NCBI GenBank assembly: GCA_934569425.1
Contig: CAKTKM010000029.1
Span: 1-13,045, forward strand
From: an uncultured Oscillospiraceae bacterium
GTDB taxonomy: Bacteria; Bacillota; Clostridia; Oscillospirales; Oscillospiraceae
Reading direction: 5' to 3'
Length of the DNA stretch: 13,045 bases
Below, in pieces: positions 2,986-10,690 of the stretch. Both the position numbers and the translations under genes were made by a program. The notes beneath the pieces are model-generated. The model made no database searches. It was given only the letters and a program-made list of their open reading frames with translations, and had not been told where the DNA came from. Position 1 is the stretch's first letter. The number at the start of each line of letters is the position of its first letter.

Positions 2986-3600
2986 ATGAATACCATTTTC
3001 ATCGGCATTGCCGGCGGCACCGGCAGCGGCAAAACCACACTGACCGAGCATCTGGCGCAGCGCTTTGGCAGCGACATCAGCGTGGTGCATCACGACAACT
3101 ACTACAAACGGCAGGACTGCTCCTTTGAGGAGCGGTGCCGCCAGAACTACGACCATCCCGACGCCTTTGACACGGCGTTGATGATCGAGGATCTGAAGGC
3201 ACTGAAGCGGGGCGAGACCATCCACTGCCCCGTGTACGACTACGCCATCCACAACCGCACCGATGAGACCGTGGAGATCAAACCCACCAAGGTGGTCATC
3301 GTGGAGGGGATCCTGATTTTCCAGAACAAGGCGCTGCGGGATCTGCTGGACATCAAGATCTTTGTGGAGACCGACGCGGACGTCCGCATCCTGCGCCGCG
3401 CCCTGCGGGATGTGGAGGAACGGGGCCGTTCGCTGGAATCGGTGGTGACCCAGTATCTGACCACCGTCAAGCCCATGCACGAGCAGTTCGTGGAGCCTAC
3501 CCGCAAGTACGCGGACATTATCGTATTGGAGGGCGGGCATAATCTGGTGGCGCTGGATATGATCATGCAGCGCATCGCCCATCACATCGCGGAGAATTGA
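2986..3600 (+). CDS. udk: Uridine kinase
   Basis: This 204-residue protein phosphorylates uridine (and usually cytidine) to UMP/CMP with ATP or GTP, the key step of pyrimidine nucleoside salvage in the cytoplasm. Family hallmarks are clear: Walker A GGTGSGKTT at 10-18, HHDNYY at 35-40, NYDHPDAFD at 54-62, the substrate-side VYDY at 83-86, VEGIL at 106-110, and an arginine-rich lid (RILRRALRDVEERGRS). Length matches bacterial Udk (about 205-215). The start is fixed by GGGAGG at 2973-2978, 7 nt before the ATG, and by a promoter just upstream. The next gene starts 3 nt after the stop, so the two are co-transcribed. The family also contains phosphoribulokinase-like enzymes, but the motif set favours uridine kinase. 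Confidence 0.93.
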   Translation: MNTIFIGIAGGTGSGKTTLTEHLAQRFGSDISVVHHDNYYKRQDCSFEERCRQNYDHPDAFDTALMIEDLKALKRGETIHCPVYDYAIHNRTDETVEIKPTKVVIVEGILIFQNKALRDLLDIKIFVETDADVRILRRALRDVEERGRSLESVVTQYLTTVKPMHEQFVEPTRKYADIIVLEGGHNLVALDMIMQRIAHHIAEN

Positions 3601-3603
3601 TCT

Positions 3604-4347
3604 ATGCTGTTACCTATCCTCGGCACCCTCTCCCTGTTGGGAGCGGTCTACTTTCTGCTTCCCCTGAGCATCGGTGTATGTCATATCGGCATGTTCTGGC
3701 CGGCGGCGCTGCTGCTGCTGGCGGCGGCCTATTGCTTCTTTCCCGGCTTTTTCCGGCGTTTTCCCCGGTGGCTGAAGGCTTTGCTGCTCTCCGGCGTGGG
3801 ACTGGTGCTGGCGGCAGCGCTGACGGTACTGACCGTTATGGCCGCGGCGGCAGCGGATCGCCCCACAGGAGACAATGCGCCGGAAACCGTGGTGCTACTG
3901 GGCTGTCAGGTCTATCACGGCCGCCCCAGCATGATGCTGCGAGGACGGATCAACGCGGCCTATGATTACCTGACCGCCCACCCCGGCGCGGTGTGCATCA
4001 CCACCGGCGGGCTGGACAGCAGCAGCGAGACCCTGACGGAGGGCGGCTGCGCCCGGCAGGAGCTGATCGCCATGGGCATCGCGCCCGAGCGCGTTTATGC
4101 CGAGGAAAGGTCCTTCGACACCCGGGAAAACCTGCTGTTTGCCGCCGAAATCATCGAAGAACATAAACTAAGCGATCATATAGTTATTGCGAGTGACAAT
4201 TTTCACCAATATCGCGGCCAATTATTTGCCCGCGAGGCGGGTTTGACGGCACAGTCCGCCGGCTGCTTCAGTCCGTGGTTTTTAGGGGCCGGCTACGCCT
4301 GCCGCGAAGTCGTGGGTATTTTGGCTACCTGGGCAGGGCTGGCATAG
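3604..4347 (+). CDS. Membrane-anchored DUF218 (YdcF/SanA/ElyC-like) protein
   Basis: The protein has 247 residues. Three hydrophobic segments at about 1-25, 30-48 and 58-84 anchor it in the membrane, followed by a DUF218 domain. Visible DUF218 signatures are VVLLGCQV (96-103), TTGG (133-136), a conserved Glu in LTEGG (near 146), SFDTREN (170-176) and SDNFHQYR (197-204). Members such as E. coli SanA, ElyC and YdcF are linked to envelope integrity or peptidoglycan lipid-carrier metabolism, and YdcF binds SAM; the exact reaction is not known. The start lies 3 nt after udk, with GGAGA (3591-3595) inside the end of udk, so translation is probably coupled. An oddity is a patch from about 4150 to 4227 that drops to roughly one-third G+C and uses codons rare in this window (CTA, ATA, TTA). 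Two hairpins follow the stop. Confidence 0.85.
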   Translation: MLLPILGTLSLLGAVYFLLPLSIGVCHIGMFWPAALLLLAAAYCFFPGFFRRFPRWLKALLLSGVGLVLAAALTVLTVMAAAAADRPTGDNAPETVVLLGCQVYHGRPSMMLRGRINAAYDYLTAHPGAVCITTGGLDSSSETLTEGGCARQELIAMGIAPERVYAEERSFDTRENLLFAAEIIEEHKLSDHIVIASDNFHQYRGQLFAREAGLTAQSAGCFSPWFLGAGYACREVVGILATWAGLA

Positions 4348-4365: not shown

Positions 4366-4405
4366 AGAAAAGGATTCCGTGCCGTTCGGCGCGGAACCCT
4401 TTTCT
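4366..4405. terminator. Long hairpin between convergent units, possibly terminating the minus-strand operon
   Basis: The arms 4366-4384 and 4387-4405 pair almost completely, with one A-C mismatch and one G-T pair. The T-rich segment (CCTTTTCT) is part of the stem on either strand, so it is not a textbook terminator. On the minus strand it is followed by the A/T-rich TAAATAAA, and it lies about 64 nt beyond the stop of the aldolase gene, so it may end that operon. On the plus strand it is the first of two hairpins after the ydcF-like gene. Confidence 0.55.
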
Positions 4406-4468: not shown

Positions 4469-5074
4469 TCAAAGGCGTCTGAGCTCCACCGGTTCACCCA
4501 CCTGCAAAGCATAGTGGTAAATACGGGCGCTGTCTTCAATGTACTGAGCGCGGAGGCGCGCCTCGTTCAGGTCTTTTCCCACCGCCAGCACACCATGATT
4601 ACCCAACAGGCAGCCGCCGCGGCCATCCCGCAGGCAGGGTATCGCGTTCTCCCCCACCGCATCGGTACCGGGAGTGGCATACGCGGCGCACTCCACCGCG
4701 CCACCCAGAAAGAGAGCGGTCTCGATCAGCACCGGAGGGATCGGCTTATGCACCACGGCAAAGGCCGTGGCATAGGGGGAATGTGTATGGAAAATGGCCT
4801 GATGCGCCGGATACGCCCGGTACACGGCGGCATGCATCCGCCACTCGCTTGAGGGGCACAGTTCCCCCTCCACAACATTTCCCTCCAGATCGCACCGGAC
4901 AATATCCACAGGCCGCATGACCGTATAGCGCACCGAGGTAGGCGTGATCAGCATGGTACCGTCCCCCAGCGCCACGCTGAGATTTCCGCTGGTGCCGGTA
5001 AACAGCCCCTCCCGCAGAGATTCCAGACACACGTCCACCATTTCCTGCCGCAGTTCTTTCCGGGAATACTCCAT
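4469..5074 (-). CDS. Class II (FucA-type) aldolase, probably 5-deoxyribulose-1-phosphate aldolase
   Basis: A zinc-dependent class II aldolase/adducin family protein of 201 residues, the last gene of a four-gene operon. Visible are the phosphate-loop motifs GTSGNLS (27-33) and TPTSVRY (44-50), PSSEWRMH with the catalytic/zinc Glu (E77), the zinc pair HTH (H96, H98) and the third zinc His in GNHGVL (H160). These match E. coli fuculose-1-phosphate aldolase Glu73, His92, His94, His155. Family members split ketose-1-phosphates into dihydroxyacetone phosphate and an aldehyde. Placed after an MtnA-type isomerase, the likely substrate is 5-deoxy-D-ribulose 1-phosphate (giving acetaldehyde) and/or methylthioribulose 1-phosphate (giving methylthioacetaldehyde). 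This step is inference from context. L-fuculose- or rhamnulose-phosphate aldolase and MtnB dehydratase are alternatives; no fucose, rhamnose or further mtn genes are nearby. The start is preceded by a G-rich site (GCGGGGGCG), and the gap to the isomerase gene is 41 nt. Confidence 0.85.
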   Translation of the reverse strand: MEYSRKELRQEMVDVCLESLREGLFTGTSGNLSVALGDGTMLITPTSVRYTVMRPVDIVRCDLEGNVVEGELCPSSEWRMHAAVYRAYPAHQAIFHTHSPYATAFAVVHKPIPPVLIETALFLGGAVECAAYATPGTDAVGENAIPCLRDGRGGCLLGNHGVLAVGKDLNEARLRAQYIEDSARIYHYALQVGEPVELRRL

Positions 5075-5115
5075 TTTTACGCCCCCGCTTATTTTAGAAT
5101 GATCATTTTGTTTCC

Positions 5116-6183
5116 TTAAATTACCATTTCGTAGGGTCCCAGCTCACTGACCTTCAGATATTCCCGCAGCGCATAGGGGGAGTAGATGCCCAGATCTGTT
5201 ACCACCCCCGTGATCAGCTGCGGCGGCGTGATGTCAAAAGCGGGATAATAGCCCTTGACCCCATCGGCGGCGGTCTTCACCCCCATGGCCTCCAGCGTAT
5301 CCCGGGGGTCGCGCATTTCGATATGGACGGTGTCCACGGTGGGATGCCCCTTGTCGGGGATCCCGCTGACATATACCGGCACCCCCAGATAATTGGCCGC
5401 AATGGAGATCTGGAAGGTTCCCACCTTATTGGCGATATAGCCGTCGCAGCAGATGGCGTCCGCCGCGCAGGTGAACACGTCCACATGCTCCTTCTGCATC
5501 ACATAGGCGGGCATATTATCGGTAATGACCGTCACATCAAAGCCCATGTCGTGACAAACGGTGGCCGTCAGCCGCGCCCCCTGAAAATAGGGGCGGGTCT
5601 CCGGGCAGAACAGCCGGATGTTCTTGCCCCGCTGCCGGCACTCCCGCAGCATCATGGCCACAATGGTCTCGCCAAAGCACTGGGTCATCACGGTACCGTT
5701 GTCGGGGATCCTGTCCACCAGAAATTTGGCCATTTGCCCCACACGCCCATAGCGGCGGTTATTGGTGGCCACGGTATAGTCCCGAATAGCCAGCGCCACA
5801 TCCGGCACTCCCCTGGCAATGGCCTCTCTGGCCGCCTCCAGACAGCCGCCGCAGATCAGCTGCATCCGCCCCACGGTGGTGGGACGGGCGTGAGAGATGG
5901 TGTCCATCGCCTGTTCCAGGTAGGCCACCTGCTTTTCCGCCGTCATGTCCCGGCATTCATAGGCCGCCAGCGCCATGCCCATGGCGGCGGCGGTAAAGGG
6001 ACCGGTGGACTGGGTGACCATGTCCGTCAGCGCCTGCGCCACCTCGCCGTGGGTGCGGCAGGTGACAAAGGACACCTTGCGGGGATACACCCGCCGATCC
6101 AGAATACGAACCTCGCCGCTGTCATACCACGCCACGTTTTCATATCGCATCATAAAGGCAAGGCCTTTGTCCGCTCGCTCCAT
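5116..6183 (-). CDS. MtnA-type aldose-1-phosphate isomerase (5-deoxyribose / methylthioribose 1-phosphate)
   Basis: A 355-residue member of the MtnA/eIF2B-like isomerase family, which converts methylthioribose 1-phosphate or 5-deoxyribose 1-phosphate to the ketose 1-phosphate. Family motifs seen are ARPTTV (99-104), TQC with the catalytic Cys (C169), CPETRPYFQGARLT (193-206), VITDNMP (219-225), the catalytic Asp in AAD (D242), IANKVGT (250-256) and PAFDITPPQLIT near the C-terminus. It is divergent from classical MtnA. The usual RPTAVNL is RPTTVGR, the usual GADRI/NGD segment is AADAICCDG, and NPAFD is YPAFD. That fits a subgroup with a different substrate, but I cannot assign it by sequence alone. 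The start is supported by AAGGAGAG 8 nt before ATG 6183; the deaminase stop is 15 nt upstream, so the genes are co-transcribed. A translation initiation factor role is unlikely given the intact catalytic pair. Confidence 0.87.
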   Translation of the reverse strand: MERADKGLAFMMRYENVAWYDSGEVRILDRRVYPRKVSFVTCRTHGEVAQALTDMVTQSTGPFTAAAMGMALAAYECRDMTAEKQVAYLEQAMDTISHARPTTVGRMQLICGGCLEAAREAIARGVPDVALAIRDYTVATNNRRYGRVGQMAKFLVDRIPDNGTVMTQCFGETIVAMMLRECRQRGKNIRLFCPETRPYFQGARLTATVCHDMGFDVTVITDNMPAYVMQKEHVDVFTCAADAICCDGYIANKVGTFQISIAANYLGVPVYVSGIPDKGHPTVDTVHIEMRDPRDTLEAMGVKTAADGVKGYYPAFDITPPQLITGVVTDLGIYSPYALREYLKVSELGPYEMVI

Positions 6184-6198
6184 GCTTTTCTCTCCTTT

Positions 6199-7488
6199 TT
6201 ACACGCCGTACAGCCGCTTGACGGCGGCGCGGGCTTCATACAGCACCCGCTCTTTGTCCAGCGTCAGATATTCTCCGTTTTCATACAGCACCTGTCCGTC
6301 CACCATGGTCATGCACACGTCCGAGGCCTGCGCGCTGTAAACCACCAGCCCCGCCGTGTCCAGATGGGGAAACAGGTGCGGCGCACTCAGGTCAATGGCG
6401 ATAATGTCCGCCCGCTTCCCGGCCTCAAGAGTGCCGGTATCGCCGCGCCCCTGTAGCTTTGCGCCGTTGGCAGTTGCCATCGTCAGCACCTGCGGCGCGC
6501 TGAGAAGCGCTGCGTCCTGACAGTGTCCGTTGTGGATCACCGCCGCCAGATGCAGCTCCTCCAGCATATTGAGGTTGTTGTTGCTGGCGGCGCCGTCTGT
6601 TCCCAGCGCCACGTTGACGCCCTCCTCCAGCAGCTGCGGCACGGGGGCAAAGCCGCTGCCCAGCTTCATATTACTGGTAGGATTGTGGATCACGCTGACG
6701 CCCTTTCGCCGCAGCAGCGCCCGGTCTTCCGCCGTCACCCACACGCAATGGGCAGCGGCGCAGGGTACCTCGAACACCCCCAGATCGTTCATCCATTGTG
6801 CCGGCGTCTTGCCGTATTTCTCTATGCAGCCCTTATGCTCGCTTTTCGTCTCGCTGAGGTGAATGTGCATCCTCGCTCCGTTTTCCCGGCACCATGCCGC
6901 CATCCCCGCCGCCACGTTGGCATTACAGGTGTACTCGGCATGAAGACAGCCCTCCACCACGACGCGCCCCCCGGCGGCACCGTTCCAGCAGCGGTAGCAT
7001 TCCTCCAGCTTTCTGGCGCTCTCGTTTTTCTCATAGGTTTCCTCCGGATCGAAGGCCCGCACCGGATAGCAGAGGTTTGCCTTGATGCCGCAGCGCGCCG
7101 CCAGTTCCGCCGTCTCCCATGTGAAAAAGTACATGTCGGAAAAGCTGGTGGTGCCGCAGGAGAGCATCTCCAGCAGCGCCAGCGCCGTTCCGGCGCGGAT
7201 GTCCTCCGCCGTCATGCGTCCCTCCACCGGAAACACGTTGTCAAACAGCCATTTTTGCAGGGGGAAATCCGTCCCAACGCCCCGCAGCAGTGTCATGGCC
7301 GCGTGGGTATGGGCGTTCACCAGCCCCGGCAGCAGCAGCTTGCCGCTCATGTCCTTCTCCCGGTCAAAGCCTCCCTCCGGACGTTCTTCACATACAGCGG
7401 TGATGCTGCCGTCCTCGATGGCCACAAAGCCGTTTCGCAGCACGCCATGGGGCGTGTAGACCCATGCGTTTTTCAGCAGTTGTCTCAT
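6199..7488 (-). CDS. MtaD-family deaminase (5'-deoxyadenosine / methylthioadenosine / SAH deaminase)
   Basis: A 429-residue amidohydrolase of the MtaD/TrzA/DadD group, which removes the 6-amino group of adenosine derivatives with ammonia release in the cytoplasm. Zinc and catalytic residues are visible: NAHTH (H60, H62), HIHLSET (zinc H210, catalytic E213), AAAHCVW (H247) and GTDGAAS (D298), spaced as in Thermotoga TM0936 (MTA/SAH deaminase). ASNNNLNML after the Asp is typical of the family. Start ATG 7488 lies 4 nt after the stop of the phosphorylase gene, with a GGAGAGG site inside that gene's end, so translation is coupled. Because it feeds an inosine-type nucleoside phosphorylase and then deoxysugar-phosphate enzymes, 5'-deoxyadenosine and/or methylthioadenosine is the expected substrate. 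SAH or adenosine remain possible. Chlorohydrolase or guanine deaminase roles are less likely because the HxHLSET spacing fits MtaD. Confidence 0.9.
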   Translation of the reverse strand: MRQLLKNAWVYTPHGVLRNGFVAIEDGSITAVCEERPEGGFDREKDMSGKLLLPGLVNAHTHAAMTLLRGVGTDFPLQKWLFDNVFPVEGRMTAEDIRAGTALALLEMLSCGTTSFSDMYFFTWETAELAARCGIKANLCYPVRAFDPEETYEKNESARKLEECYRCWNGAAGGRVVVEGCLHAEYTCNANVAAGMAAWCRENGARMHIHLSETKSEHKGCIEKYGKTPAQWMNDLGVFEVPCAAAHCVWVTAEDRALLRRKGVSVIHNPTSNMKLGSGFAPVPQLLEEGVNVALGTDGAASNNNLNMLEELHLAAVIHNGHCQDAALLSAPQVLTMATANGAKLQGRGDTGTLEAGKRADIIAIDLSAPHLFPHLDTAGLVVYSAQASDVCMTMVDGQVLYENGEYLTLDKERVLYEARAAVKRLYGV

Positions 7489-7492
7489 GGGC

Positions 7493-8314
7493 TCAGATCC
7501 TCTCCAGTACCTTTTTCAGGTACGCGCTGAAGTTATCCGCCACCAGATGCCCCACCTCGTTGACCTCTTCGTCGGTAAGGGGCTGATCCAGAATGCCCGC
7601 CGCCATATTGGTAATGACGGAAAAGCCCAGGCAGGGCAGACCGCAGTGCGCCGCCGTCAGTGCTTCGGTGACGGTGGACATGCCCACCGCGTCGCCGCCC
7701 AGCGTGCGGATGGCGCGGATCTCCGCCGCCGTCTCGAACTGGGGACCCTGCATGAAGAAATAGCAGCCCTCATGGAAGGTCAGGCCGCTGTCCGGGGCGC
7801 ATTCCCGGGCGATGGCCCGCAGGCGGGGACTATACATCTTCTGCACGTCAAAGAAGCGGGGTCCGAACTCCGGAATATTGGGTCCCCGCATGGGCGAGCA
7901 GCCCGACAGCATGATCTGATCGTTGATGATCATGATGTCGCCGGGCTTATAGTCCAGATTAACGCCGCCGGCGGCGTTGGTCAGGATCACCGCCTGACAG
8001 CCCAGCAGCTTGAACAGCCGGATGGGCGCCGTCAGCTGCGGAAAGTCATATCCCTCGTAGGAATGGAACCGCCCCGACATGCACACCACCTTACGGCCGT
8101 TGACGGTGCCGCAGATCAGCTTGCCTGCGTGGGTGGCCACGGTGGAGCGCAAAAAGTTGGGGATCTCCTCATAGGGGATCACCACCGGATCCTCCACCTG
8201 TGCCGCAAAGGGACCCAGAGACGAGCCTAATATCATGCCGATCTCCGGCTGAAAATTCAGCTTTTCCCGGACATAGCGGGCGCTTTTCTCAAAAAAATCA
8301 TAGGTATATTCCAT
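7493..8314 (-). CDS. Purine nucleoside phosphorylase family (trimeric PNP/MTAP class), inosine-type specificity
   Basis: A 273-residue family 1 nucleoside phosphorylase, first gene of the operon. Motifs seen: MILGSSLG (27-34, phosphate loop), GRFHSYEGYD (81-90), TNAAGG (112-117), GPNIPEFGPRF (144-154), GPQFET with base-binding E194, VGMSTVTE (210-217), and VITN with N236. The Glu/Asn pair corresponds to human PNP Glu201/Asn243, which selects 6-oxopurines. MTA phosphorylases have Asp at the Asn site, so this enzyme should act on inosine- or guanosine-type nucleosides, matching the adjacent deaminase. The position of human His257, which contacts the ribose 5'-OH (PLSHEEV in related bacterial enzymes), reads PLTDEEV here (D248). 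A changed 5' pocket is therefore likely; this is my alignment by eye. Start ATG 8314 is chosen over an ATG 78 nt upstream because GGGAGG lies 7 nt before it and the longer form would overlap the promoter -10. Confidence 0.9.
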   Translation of the reverse strand: MEYTYDFFEKSARYVREKLNFQPEIGMILGSSLGPFAAQVEDPVVIPYEEIPNFLRSTVATHAGKLICGTVNGRKVVCMSGRFHSYEGYDFPQLTAPIRLFKLLGCQAVILTNAAGGVNLDYKPGDIMIINDQIMLSGCSPMRGPNIPEFGPRFFDVQKMYSPRLRAIARECAPDSGLTFHEGCYFFMQGPQFETAAEIRAIRTLGGDAVGMSTVTEALTAAHCGLPCLGFSVITNMAAGILDQPLTDEEVNEVGHLVADNFSAYLKKVLERI

Positions 8315-8345: not shown

Positions 8346-8374
8346 ATTGTACCACACCGCCTACATGGTGTCAA
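8346..8374 (-). promoter_or_regulatory. Promoter of the four-gene deoxynucleoside salvage operon
   Basis: Reading the minus strand, a perfect -35 TTGACA (8369-8374), a 17-nt spacer and a -10 TACAAT (8346-8351) predict a start near 8339, giving a leader of about 25 nt before ATG 8314. This near-consensus promoter suggests strong or constitutive expression. No other promoter of this quality was seen in the short gaps downstream to the aldolase gene, consistent with one transcript from about 8339 to 4469 or beyond. Confidence 0.85.
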
Positions 8375-8406
8375 TTTCACCGCCTTCCACAATTTTCACA
8401 GCTTTT

Positions 8407-10394: not shown

Positions 10395-10640
10395 TTACAA
10401 GACACCTTTCAGTTCTTTCAGACACTTGGGACAGACATTCTTGTCCTTGTACGCCACCAGATCCTTGCTGCTGTCACAGAAAACACAGCTCAGCCGATAC
10501 TTCTTCAAGACAATGTTGGAACCATCCACATAGATCTCCAAAGCATCCCGCTCAGCGATGTCCAGCGTGCGGCGCAGCTCGATGGGCAACACGATCCGTC
10601 CCAGTTCGTCCACCTTGCGCACGATACCGGTTGACTTCAT
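10395..10640 (-). CDS. AbrB/SpoVT-type transcription regulator with C-terminal zinc ribbon
   Basis: An 81-residue DNA-binding protein. The N-terminal swapped-hairpin AbrB domain spans about 4-48 (GIVRKVDELGRIVLP, ELRRTLDI, ALEIYVDG, IVLKKY) and closely follows the AbrB/Abh/SpoVT pattern. A short C-terminal zinc ribbon has C52-x2-C55 and C70-x2-C73, the form common in Clostridia, where AbrB-like proteins control the switch from growth to stationary phase and sporulation. The start is ATG 10640, preceded by GAGGAGAGG; an ATG at 10688 is in frame but lies across the Shine-Dalgarno region. Its position, reversed after rsmI, matches abrB in B. subtilis. An inverted repeat overlaps its -35, so autoregulation is plausible. 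I leave the symbol blank because several paralogues share this form. Confidence 0.9.
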   Translation of the reverse strand: MKSTGIVRKVDELGRIVLPIELRRTLDIAERDALEIYVDGSNIVLKKYRLSCVFCDSSKDLVAYKDKNVCPKCLKELKGVL

Positions 10641-10690
10641 AGAAACCTCTCCTCTGCTCTTACGGCGGATAGGAATTCCTCCGCTCATTT

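What the first reader, a model, noticed from the sequence alone, without database searches (positions are those of the whole stretch)
4469..8314. Four-gene operon that reads as a complete deaminase-first 5'-deoxyadenosine (DHAP-shunt-like) salvage route
Seen: phosphorylase, MtaD-type deaminase, MtnA-type isomerase and class II aldolase genes lie in one minus-strand unit with gaps of 4, 15 and 41 nt, behind one near-consensus promoter. Known: 5'-deoxyadenosine from radical SAM enzymes and methylthioadenosine from polyamine-type reactions must be removed; DHAP-shunt pathways use an MTA phosphorylase or a nucleosidase plus kinase, then an MtnA-type isomerase and a class II aldolase, to yield DHAP and an aldehyde. 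DadD-type deaminases make 5'-deoxyinosine in some methanogens. Inference: here the route is 5'-deoxyadenosine to 5'-deoxyinosine to hypoxanthine plus 5-deoxyribose 1-phosphate, to 5-deoxyribulose 1-phosphate, to DHAP plus acetaldehyde. It needs no kinase and no oxygen, which suits a strict anaerobe. I do not know of this exact four-gene arrangement being characterised.
Basis: partly seen in the sequence, partly recalled or inferred. Interest (0 to 1): 0.85.

Follow-up and report, generated by a model that had tools for sequence, protein, structure and literature searches.

The report
Deaminase-first salvage operon for SAM by-products
A gut-type anaerobe carries four neighbouring genes that together look able to turn toxic leftover nucleosides from S-adenosylmethionine reactions into an ordinary sugar phosphate and an aldehyde; each chemical step is known or proposed from elsewhere, but this deaminate-first, kinase-free gene set looks like an undescribed bacterial version.

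Summary
In detail: PNP (8314-7493), MtaD/DadD-group deaminase (7488-6199), MtnA-type isomerase (6183-5116) and class II aldolase (5074-4469) form one minus-strand unit with gaps of 4, 15 and 41 nt behind an 11/12 promoter, seen in 5 of 6 relatives aligned. The pathway reading is supported but unproven. Among 80 related loci in Bacillota, Spirochaetota and Chloroflexota, phosphorylase, deaminase and isomerase lie together in 39; the aldolase is in 23. Neighbours point to SAM by-products: AhcY-family genes in 12 loci, a methionine gamma-lyase family in 4, a PnrA-type nucleoside transporter in 11. The PNP keeps its 6-oxopurine residues in 51 of 51 copies but lost the His257 equivalent in 47; 12 of 14 genomes searched have a separate DeoD, none MtnK. 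Against: the nearest relatives also carry MtnN-LuxS, Asp replaces His257 here, most clusters lack the aldolase, and ordinary nucleoside catabolism is not excluded. The chemistry was already proposed for Methanocaldococcus jannaschii (PMC6302742, passages).

The parts
8346..8374 (-). sigma-70-type promoter TTGACA-17-TACAAT with TG before the -10
   Evidence: 11 of 12; present in 5 of 6 aligned relatives
7493..8314 (-). trimeric-type purine nucleoside phosphorylase (PNP) keeping Asn243/Glu201 equivalents; Asp at the His257 equivalent (window residue 248)
6199..7488 (-). amidohydrolase deaminase of the MtaD/SahD/DadD group, metal ligands present
5116..6183 (-). MtnA-type aldose-ketose isomerase of a divergent clade; catalytic Cys and Asp in 82 of 82 aligned copies (window included)
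4469..5074 (-). class II (FucA/DrdA-like) aldolase; metal-binding His and catalytic Glu in 24 of 24 aligned copies (window included)
4370..4400 (.). palindrome with T-rich flanks between the convergent genes, plausible bidirectional terminator (inference; the scan listed it on the + strand only)

Best explanation
The operon encodes a kinase-free, deaminase-first DHAP shunt for adenosine nucleosides that lack a normal 5'-hydroxyl (5'-deoxyadenosine from radical SAM enzymes and 5'-methylthioadenosine). The deaminase makes the hypoxanthine nucleoside; the PNP, which by its Asn243/Glu201 pair takes 6-oxopurines, splits it with phosphate to hypoxanthine and 5-deoxy(methylthio)ribose 1-phosphate; the isomerase makes the ribulose 1-phosphate; the aldolase cleaves it to DHAP and acetaldehyde (or methylthioacetaldehyde). 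Shown here: gene identity, operon form, conserved catalytic residues, recurrent association of the first three genes. Inferred: the substrates, the order of steps and the physiological role.
For: PNP, DEA and ISO lie near each other in 39 of 80 related loci, 12 of these also with ALD, in three phyla. Order varies: in Spirochaetota L071 and L078 a DEA-PNP-ALD block is divergent from ISO, and in L074 one strand reads BMP, ATPase, two permeases, ALD, PNP, DEA with DeoR-ISO divergent. SAM-linked neighbours: an AhcY family, grouped by BLAST, in 12 of 80 loci (575 and 596 bits on TIGR00936 for the two members scanned, cut-off 498), the next gene upstream of DEA in all 4 Chloroflexota loci; a methionine gamma-lyase-family gene between ISO and ALD in L018, L020, L030 and L011 (one scanned, 514 bits on TIGR01328, cut-off 550). 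PNP: Asn243 and Glu201 equivalents 51 of 51, His257 lost in 47 of 51; the 4 His copies are the Chloroflexota ones on the opposite strand. A separate DeoD is over cut-off in 12 of 14 genomes. MtnK 0 of 14 (the control rang in E. coli and B. subtilis), ARD over cut-off 0 of 14. The three Oscillibacter genomes (L014, L025, L029) have no over-cut-off MtnN, no LuxS and no AhcY match, yet keep DEA-ISO-ALD. ISO is far from a second MtnA-family protein in Bullifex (33% identity; very long branch of unsure place).
Against: No activity data. Aldolase in only 23 of 80 related loci; 10 of 80 loci have PNP and ISO without DEA nearby and 16 have ISO alone. The deaminase's three best-scoring models are chlorohydrolase/TRZ-ATZ names; 5'-deoxyadenosine and MTA/SAH deaminase models rank 4th and 5th, all under cut-off. 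The nearest relatives also hold MtnN plus LuxS. The window PNP has Asp at position 257, which could still bind a 5'-OH; a control in 39 genomes of one order gave His in 1 of 9 DEA-linked and 7 of 12 unlinked PNPs, two-sided Fisher p = 0.067, kinship not corrected. DeoB over cut-off in only 4 of 14 genomes leaves R1P from ordinary nucleosides without that outlet in the rest, which suits the rival. The aldolase scores no better on DrdA than on FucA. The window's own genome is not held.
Confidence: 0.58

Rival explanations
1. Ordinary purine-nucleoside catabolism without phosphopentomutase: adenosine to inosine to ribose 1-phosphate to ribulose 1-phosphate to DHAP plus glycolaldehyde.
For: PNP and deaminase families act on ordinary nucleosides in many organisms (general knowledge); DeoB over cut-off in only 4 of 14 genomes; PnrA-type nucleoside transporter genes in 11 of 80 loci; the aldolase's third-best NCBIfam model is haloarchaeal ribulose-1-phosphate aldolase (141 bits, cut-off 300); the Chloroflexota PNPs keep His257.
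Against: A separate DeoD in 12 of 14 genomes; loss of His257 in 47 of 51 PNPs; AhcY and methionine gamma-lyase-family neighbours.
Confidence: 0.25
2. Promiscuous module for all SAM-derived adenosine nucleosides, S-adenosylhomocysteine included: DEA makes S-inosylhomocysteine, an AhcY-family enzyme splits it, and PNP-ISO-ALD clear ribose, deoxyribose and methylthioribose products together.
For: AhcY-family gene beside DEA in the 4 Chloroflexota loci, and in one block with the nucleoside transporter in 6 Clostridia loci (L037, L045, L049, L054, L055, L061); the S-inosylhomocysteine route of methanogens is recalled, not from a call.
Against: No AhcY among the window ORFs scanned; PF05221 in only 2 of 14 genomes; the five nearest of the genomes searched have LuxS.
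Confidence: 0.12
3. Incomplete disposal: the conserved PNP-DEA-ISO core recovers hypoxanthine and makes a ketose phosphate with another fate; the aldolase is a lineage-specific addition.
For: PNP+DEA+ISO without ALD is the commonest pattern (27 of 80; some loci are cut by contig ends, but 20 of the 59 with enough flank show it too); the gene order downstream of ISO in L001 and L004 matches apart from ALD.
Against: ALD occurs in the same set in distant subclades and three phyla with varied gene order; its catalytic residues are invariant in 24 of 24 copies.
Confidence: 0.05

Closest known systems
DHAP shunt, kinase form (drdK-drdI-drdA of Bacillus thuringiensis, PMC6079011; mtnK-mtnA-ald2 of E. 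coli ATCC 25922, PMC10986504)
   Same: MtnA-type isomerase and class II aldolase giving DHAP plus aldehyde from 5-deoxyribose 1-phosphate
   Different: no kinase or nucleosidase gene in the cluster; entry by deaminase plus PNP
DHAP shunt, MtnP form (named in PMC10986504; a phosphorylase cluster predicted for Clostridium phytofermentans in PMC6079011; its use in Rhodospirillum rubrum is recalled)
   Same: phosphorolytic entry, isomerase, aldolase
   Different: the known form cuts the adenine nucleoside with an MTA phosphorylase; here a PNP-I-type enzyme with 6-oxopurine residues, plus a deaminase
M. jannaschii 5'-deoxyadenosine/MTA route (5'-deoxyadenosine deaminase, MtiP, MJ0454), discussed in PMC6302742 with a proposed aldolase step
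   Same: deaminate, phosphorolyse, isomerise; aldolase to DHAP plus acetaldehyde proposed in print
   Different: archaeal; PMC6079011 notes another proposed fate there (6-deoxy-5-ketofructose 1-phosphate); here a bacterial operon with its own class II aldolase
Pseudomonas aeruginosa MTA deaminase plus methylthioinosine phosphorylase (described in PMC6302742)
   Same: deaminase-first MTA degradation
   Different: the passage follows the route as far as MTR-1-P; here isomerase and aldolase are in the operon

Membership tests
DHAP shunt | MtnA-type isomerase and class II aldolase in one cluster with an enzyme making (deoxy)ribose 1-phosphate | tested here: met
DHAP shunt | nucleosidase plus MtnK kinase, or MtnP phosphorylase, as entry step | tested here: not met
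   MtnK 0 of 14 relatives' genomes; the window's phosphorylase is PNP-I type, 88 bits on TIGR01694 MTAP (cut-off 275); MtnN over cut-off in 7 of 14 genomes but not in the operon
DHAP shunt | conversion of 5-deoxyribulose 1-phosphate to DHAP plus acetaldehyde | not testable with these tools
   needs enzyme assay
MtnA (S-methyl-5-thioribose-1-phosphate isomerase) | over the TIGR00512 equivalog cut-off | tested here: not met
   191 of 279 bits; over the wider subfamily PRK05720, 323 of 271
MtnA (S-methyl-5-thioribose-1-phosphate isomerase) | catalytic Cys and Asp | tested here: met
   82 of 82 aligned copies, aligned with 1t9k; residue roles recalled
Trimeric PNP | over PNP model cut-off; Glu201 and Asn243 (6-oxopurine) equivalents | tested here: met
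   residue roles from passages of PMC9916683
Trimeric PNP | His257 in the sugar pocket | tested here: not met
   Asp in the window; lost in 47 of 51 related copies; the 5'-OH contact itself is recalled
DadD/MtaD deaminase | amidohydrolase metal ligands (HxH, H, H, D) | tested here: met
   window residues 60, 62, 210, 247, 298; kept in 55, 55, 57, 56 and 57 of 57 aligned copies, the misses being gaps and one Tyr
DadD/MtaD deaminase | over a deaminase equivalog cut-off | tested here: not met
   all models under cut-off
Class II aldolase DrdA/Ald2 | metal His triad and catalytic Glu | tested here: met
   24 of 24 copies; roles partly recalled
Class II aldolase DrdA/Ald2 | closer to DrdA than to FucA | tested here: inconclusive
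   E. coli-type FucA entries 114.5-124 bits, 4c24/4c25 FucA 114, DrdA 6btd 108
Classical aerobic methionine salvage | ARD (MtnD) | tested here: not met
   0 of 14 over cut-off, one match of 22.7 bits below it; the window's own genome not held

The most novel reading that the evidence does not exclude
Anaerobes of at least three phyla run a regulated scavenging system for SAM-derived nucleosides from outside and inside the cell: a PnrA-type ABC importer, AhcY, a broad deaminase, a 5'-modified-nucleoside PNP without the His257 contact, a private MtnA-like isomerase clade and, in some, a methionine gamma-lyase-family enzyme and a class II aldolase. The window would be the minimal form, without a linked transporter.
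Probability: 0.3. Interest if true: 0.68.

Novelty: new variant of a known kind. Interest (0 to 1): 0.52.

Why it matters
Strict anaerobes rely on radical SAM enzymes, which 5'-deoxyadenosine inhibits, and cannot use oxygen-dependent methionine salvage. If right, the operon explains how such bacteria, including three Oscillibacter genomes without over-cut-off MtnN and without LuxS, AhcY or MtnK matches, clear these by-products; it would spare ATP, recover hypoxanthine and give DHAP. It also offers a simple residue marker (loss of PNP His257) to test for re-annotating 'inosine/guanosine' phosphorylases, and four small proteins to assay.

Tried and rejected
Riboswitch control: at gathering thresholds no Rfam match near the operon in 7 sources (window, L001, L018, L027, L039, L054, L074); only two tRNAs and a 6S RNA elsewhere. 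Horizontal gain of the unit by composition: GC like the flanks. Phylum jumps: the isomerase tree keeps Spirochaetota and Chloroflexota each on one side of a branch, so recent transfer between phyla is not shown. 'DEA anywhere in the genome predicts loss of PNP His257': rejected, six His-type PNPs lie in genomes with a 37-47% DEA relative elsewhere; only linkage showed a trend. LuxS or MetK beside the Chloroflexota AhcY (guessed from lengths): rejected, in L036 they are GreA and dGTPase. Not used: structure prediction, fold search, the viral contigs and metagenome contigs collections, the phage, plasmid and E. coli collections, and two of the three homologous-protein searches, the one used, found 6950 proteins related to the isomerase among the 8000 scored. 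Residue comparison of the deaminase with T. maritima TM0936 was not done.
Full report
OBSERVATION. For three the listed ORF has exactly those ends; the PNP frame is listed mechanically from a TTG at 8392, and the ATG at 8314 inside it gives the 273 aa seen in most relatives. Gaps are 4, 15 and 41 nt. The families are PNP, amidohydrolase deaminase, MtnA-type isomerase and class II aldolase. A promoter-like site (TTGACA-17-TACAAT, 11 of 12) ends 31 nt before the ATG. I aligned the upstream region of six relatives out of 80: the -35 is present in five (not L010); the -10 is TAGAAT in L001 and L002 and TACAAT in L004, L005 and L006. GC content matches the flanks. No whole genome is held for the window.

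RELATIVES. A scan of genome contigs with the isomerase found 344 relatives; the best 80 were kept. By tblastn, 80 of 80 hold ISO, 55 DEA, 51 PNP and 23 ALD; 15 hold all four somewhere in the fetched DNA. With distance limits around ISO (DEA and ALD 4 kb, PNP 6 kb) the patterns are PNP+DEA+ISO 27, ISO alone 16, all four 12, PNP+ISO 9, DEA+ISO+ALD 8, DEA+ISO 7, PNP+ISO+ALD 1, of 80; some loci are cut by contig ends, and among the 59 with at least 3 kb upstream and 1.2 kb downstream the figures are 20, 9, 11, 9, 4, 5 and 1. DEA is upstream of ISO on the same strand in 52 loci, at 52 nt or less in 51. Gene order differs in Spirochaetota: in L071 and L078 a DEA-PNP-ALD block diverges from ISO, and in L074 one strand reads BMP protein, ATPase, two permeases, ALD, PNP, DEA, with DeoR and ISO divergent. 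Different gene orders of the same set argue for a functional link. In the tree the window sits with L001 and L002 (100/99); Spirochaetota (9 rows) and Chloroflexota (4 rows) each form one side of a branch; the one outside MtnA-family row (L109) has a very long branch of unsure place. The family is patchy: of 39 genomes of one order (centre genome included) two hold a close isomerase (61 and 69%) and nine a distant one of 29-34%.

NEIGHBOURS. Neighbours were grouped by BLAST into 315 families (proteins of 100 aa or more within five genes of ISO). I scanned 32 neighbour proteins from 29 of these families, so most neighbours are unnamed. An AhcY family occurs in 12 of 80 loci (two members scanned): it is the next gene upstream of DEA in L036, L041, L046 and L050, and stands in one block with a BMP/PnrA-type ABC transporter that diverges from PNP-DEA-ISO in L037, L045, L049, L054, L055 and L061. 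The BMP family is in 11 of 80 loci; the L018 member resembles solved lipoproteins such as BmpA and TmpC. A methionine gamma-lyase-family gene lies between ISO and ALD in L018, L020, L030 and L011; the one scanned scores 514 bits on TIGR01328, under its cut-off of 550. A DeoR-type regulator adjoins ISO in L067 and L074. Many other scanned neighbours have no evident link (for example lipase, glycosyl hydrolase, glutamine synthetase, NusA). None of the SAM-linked or transporter families is among the five flanking window ORFs that were scanned.

PNP RESIDUES. In the bovine chain 1fxu alignment the His of '-NHEEV-' counts, by hand, as residue 257; Asn243 and Glu201 fix the 6-oxopurine base (passage of PMC9916683), and Phe200, His257 and Phe159 form a pocket in human PNP (passage of PMC10226123). 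That His257 touches the ribose 5'-OH is recalled. Of 51 PNPs in the 80-locus set (one locus, L003, counted twice; L011's fragment left out), Asn243, Glu201, Met219 and Tyr88 equivalents are kept in 51; His257 is replaced in 47 (Asp 20, Gly 6, Thr 6, Ser 4, Asn 3, Glu 2, Ala 2, Leu 2, Gln 1, Val 1), the window having Asp; the 4 with His are the Chloroflexota copies on the opposite strand. Three Oscillibacter PNPs outside the operon have Gly; the Bullifex one has His. Control: among 39 genomes of one order, 21 have a trimeric PNP. His is present in 1 of 9 with DEA in the fetched 4 kb and in 7 of 12 without (one of the 12 is an Oscillibacter PNP just named); Fisher two-sided p 0.067, one-sided 0.037, not corrected for kinship. 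This is suggestive only, and Asp can still accept a hydrogen bond.

REST OF THE GENOME. I chose 14 of the 80 loci and searched their genomes (completeness not given; several are MAGs). Over cut-off: MtnN 7 of 14, LuxS 6, AhcY 2, MtnK 0, ARD 0 (one match below cut-off), DeoB 4, DeoD 12. All 14 have at least a weak MtnN match; in the Oscillibacter genomes the best one lies on the DeoD gene. The trimeric PNP was found in 14; two genomes had a second, weak match of 25-31 bits. The aldolase has a match of at least 50% identity in 9 of 14, only 29-39% in 4 (behind L006, L044, L047, L065) and none in one (L004). Reading: the five genomes nearest the window (L001, L002, L004, L006, L010) hold MtnN beside LuxS, so they have another way to hydrolyse these nucleosides; the three Oscillibacter genomes have no MtnN over cut-off and no LuxS, AhcY or MtnK match, yet have DEA-ISO-ALD, which makes the deaminase-first route their only outlet among those I searched for. 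A second general phosphorylase (DeoD) in 12 of 14 suggests the trimeric PNP does something else. DeoB missing from most cuts the other way.

MECHANISM. Best reading (0.58): deamination first, because the PNP keeps a 6-oxopurine site; phosphorolysis replaces nucleosidase plus kinase; isomerase and aldolase then follow the DHAP shunt. Catalytic residues are invariant in isomerase (82 of 82) and aldolase (24 of 24) and nearly so in the deaminase. The deaminase's substrate cannot be read from its family scores: the three best models are named chlorohydrolase or TRZ/ATZ hydrolase, with 5'-deoxyadenosine and MTA/SAH deaminase 4th and 5th, all under cut-off. Substrates are inferred. The chief rival is ordinary nucleoside catabolism through ribulose 1-phosphate (0.25).

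KNOWN WORK. PMC6079011 (passages) showed the kinase form in B. thuringiensis, predicted a phosphorylase form in C. phytofermentans, and noted transporter genes in some clusters; PMC10986504 and PMC12632272 (passages) cover the E. coli form and its regulation. PMC6302742 (passages) describes the M. jannaschii deaminase and MtiP, cites the isomerase, and proposes the aldolase step to acetaldehyde and DHAP. So the chemistry was proposed before; a bacterial operon with deaminase, PNP-I-type phosphorylase, isomerase and aldolase did not appear in my searches, which cover open-licence papers only and whose longer lists (13 and 58) were capped. The M. jannaschii original papers were not read (one not held).

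VERDICT. Real operon, sound reading, moderate novelty: a new variant of the DHAP shunt. Interest 0.52.

Noticed in passing
L036, L041, L046, L050 (AhcY next upstream of DEA); L037, L045, L049, L054, L055, L061 (AhcY in the transporter block): AhcY-family genes beside a nucleoside deaminase and a PnrA-type importer suggest uptake or recycling of SAH or S-inosylhomocysteine in gut anaerobes.
   Followed up: partly
L012, L021, L072: The same isomerase family stands without PNP, DEA or ALD in the fetched DNA, beside rimP/nusA-type genes, in Sphaerochaeta-like spirochaetes (families scanned in L012 only).
   Followed up: no
L058, L063, L080: The isomerase stands beside an AMP-binding acyl-CoA ligase family gene (scanned in L058 only), without PNP, DEA or ALD in the fetched DNA.
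   Followed up: no
L003:415-6846: PNP-DEA-ISO appears twice in mirrored coordinates with equal lengths and identities on a 7,260-base contig, probably an assembly artefact; not compared letter by letter.
   Followed up: no
L014, L025, L029: Oscillibacter genomes with no MtnN over cut-off and no LuxS, AhcY or MtnK match: how they recycle S-adenosylhomocysteine is unclear.
   Followed up: partly
window 10395-10688 (-): Short protein (97 aa) matching only the AbrB-like N-terminal part of the SpoVT model (57.9 bits, cut-off 235.9).
   Followed up: no
window 2986-4347 (+): Uridine kinase (over NCBIfam cut-off) followed by a DUF218 protein, convergent with the operon.
   Followed up: no
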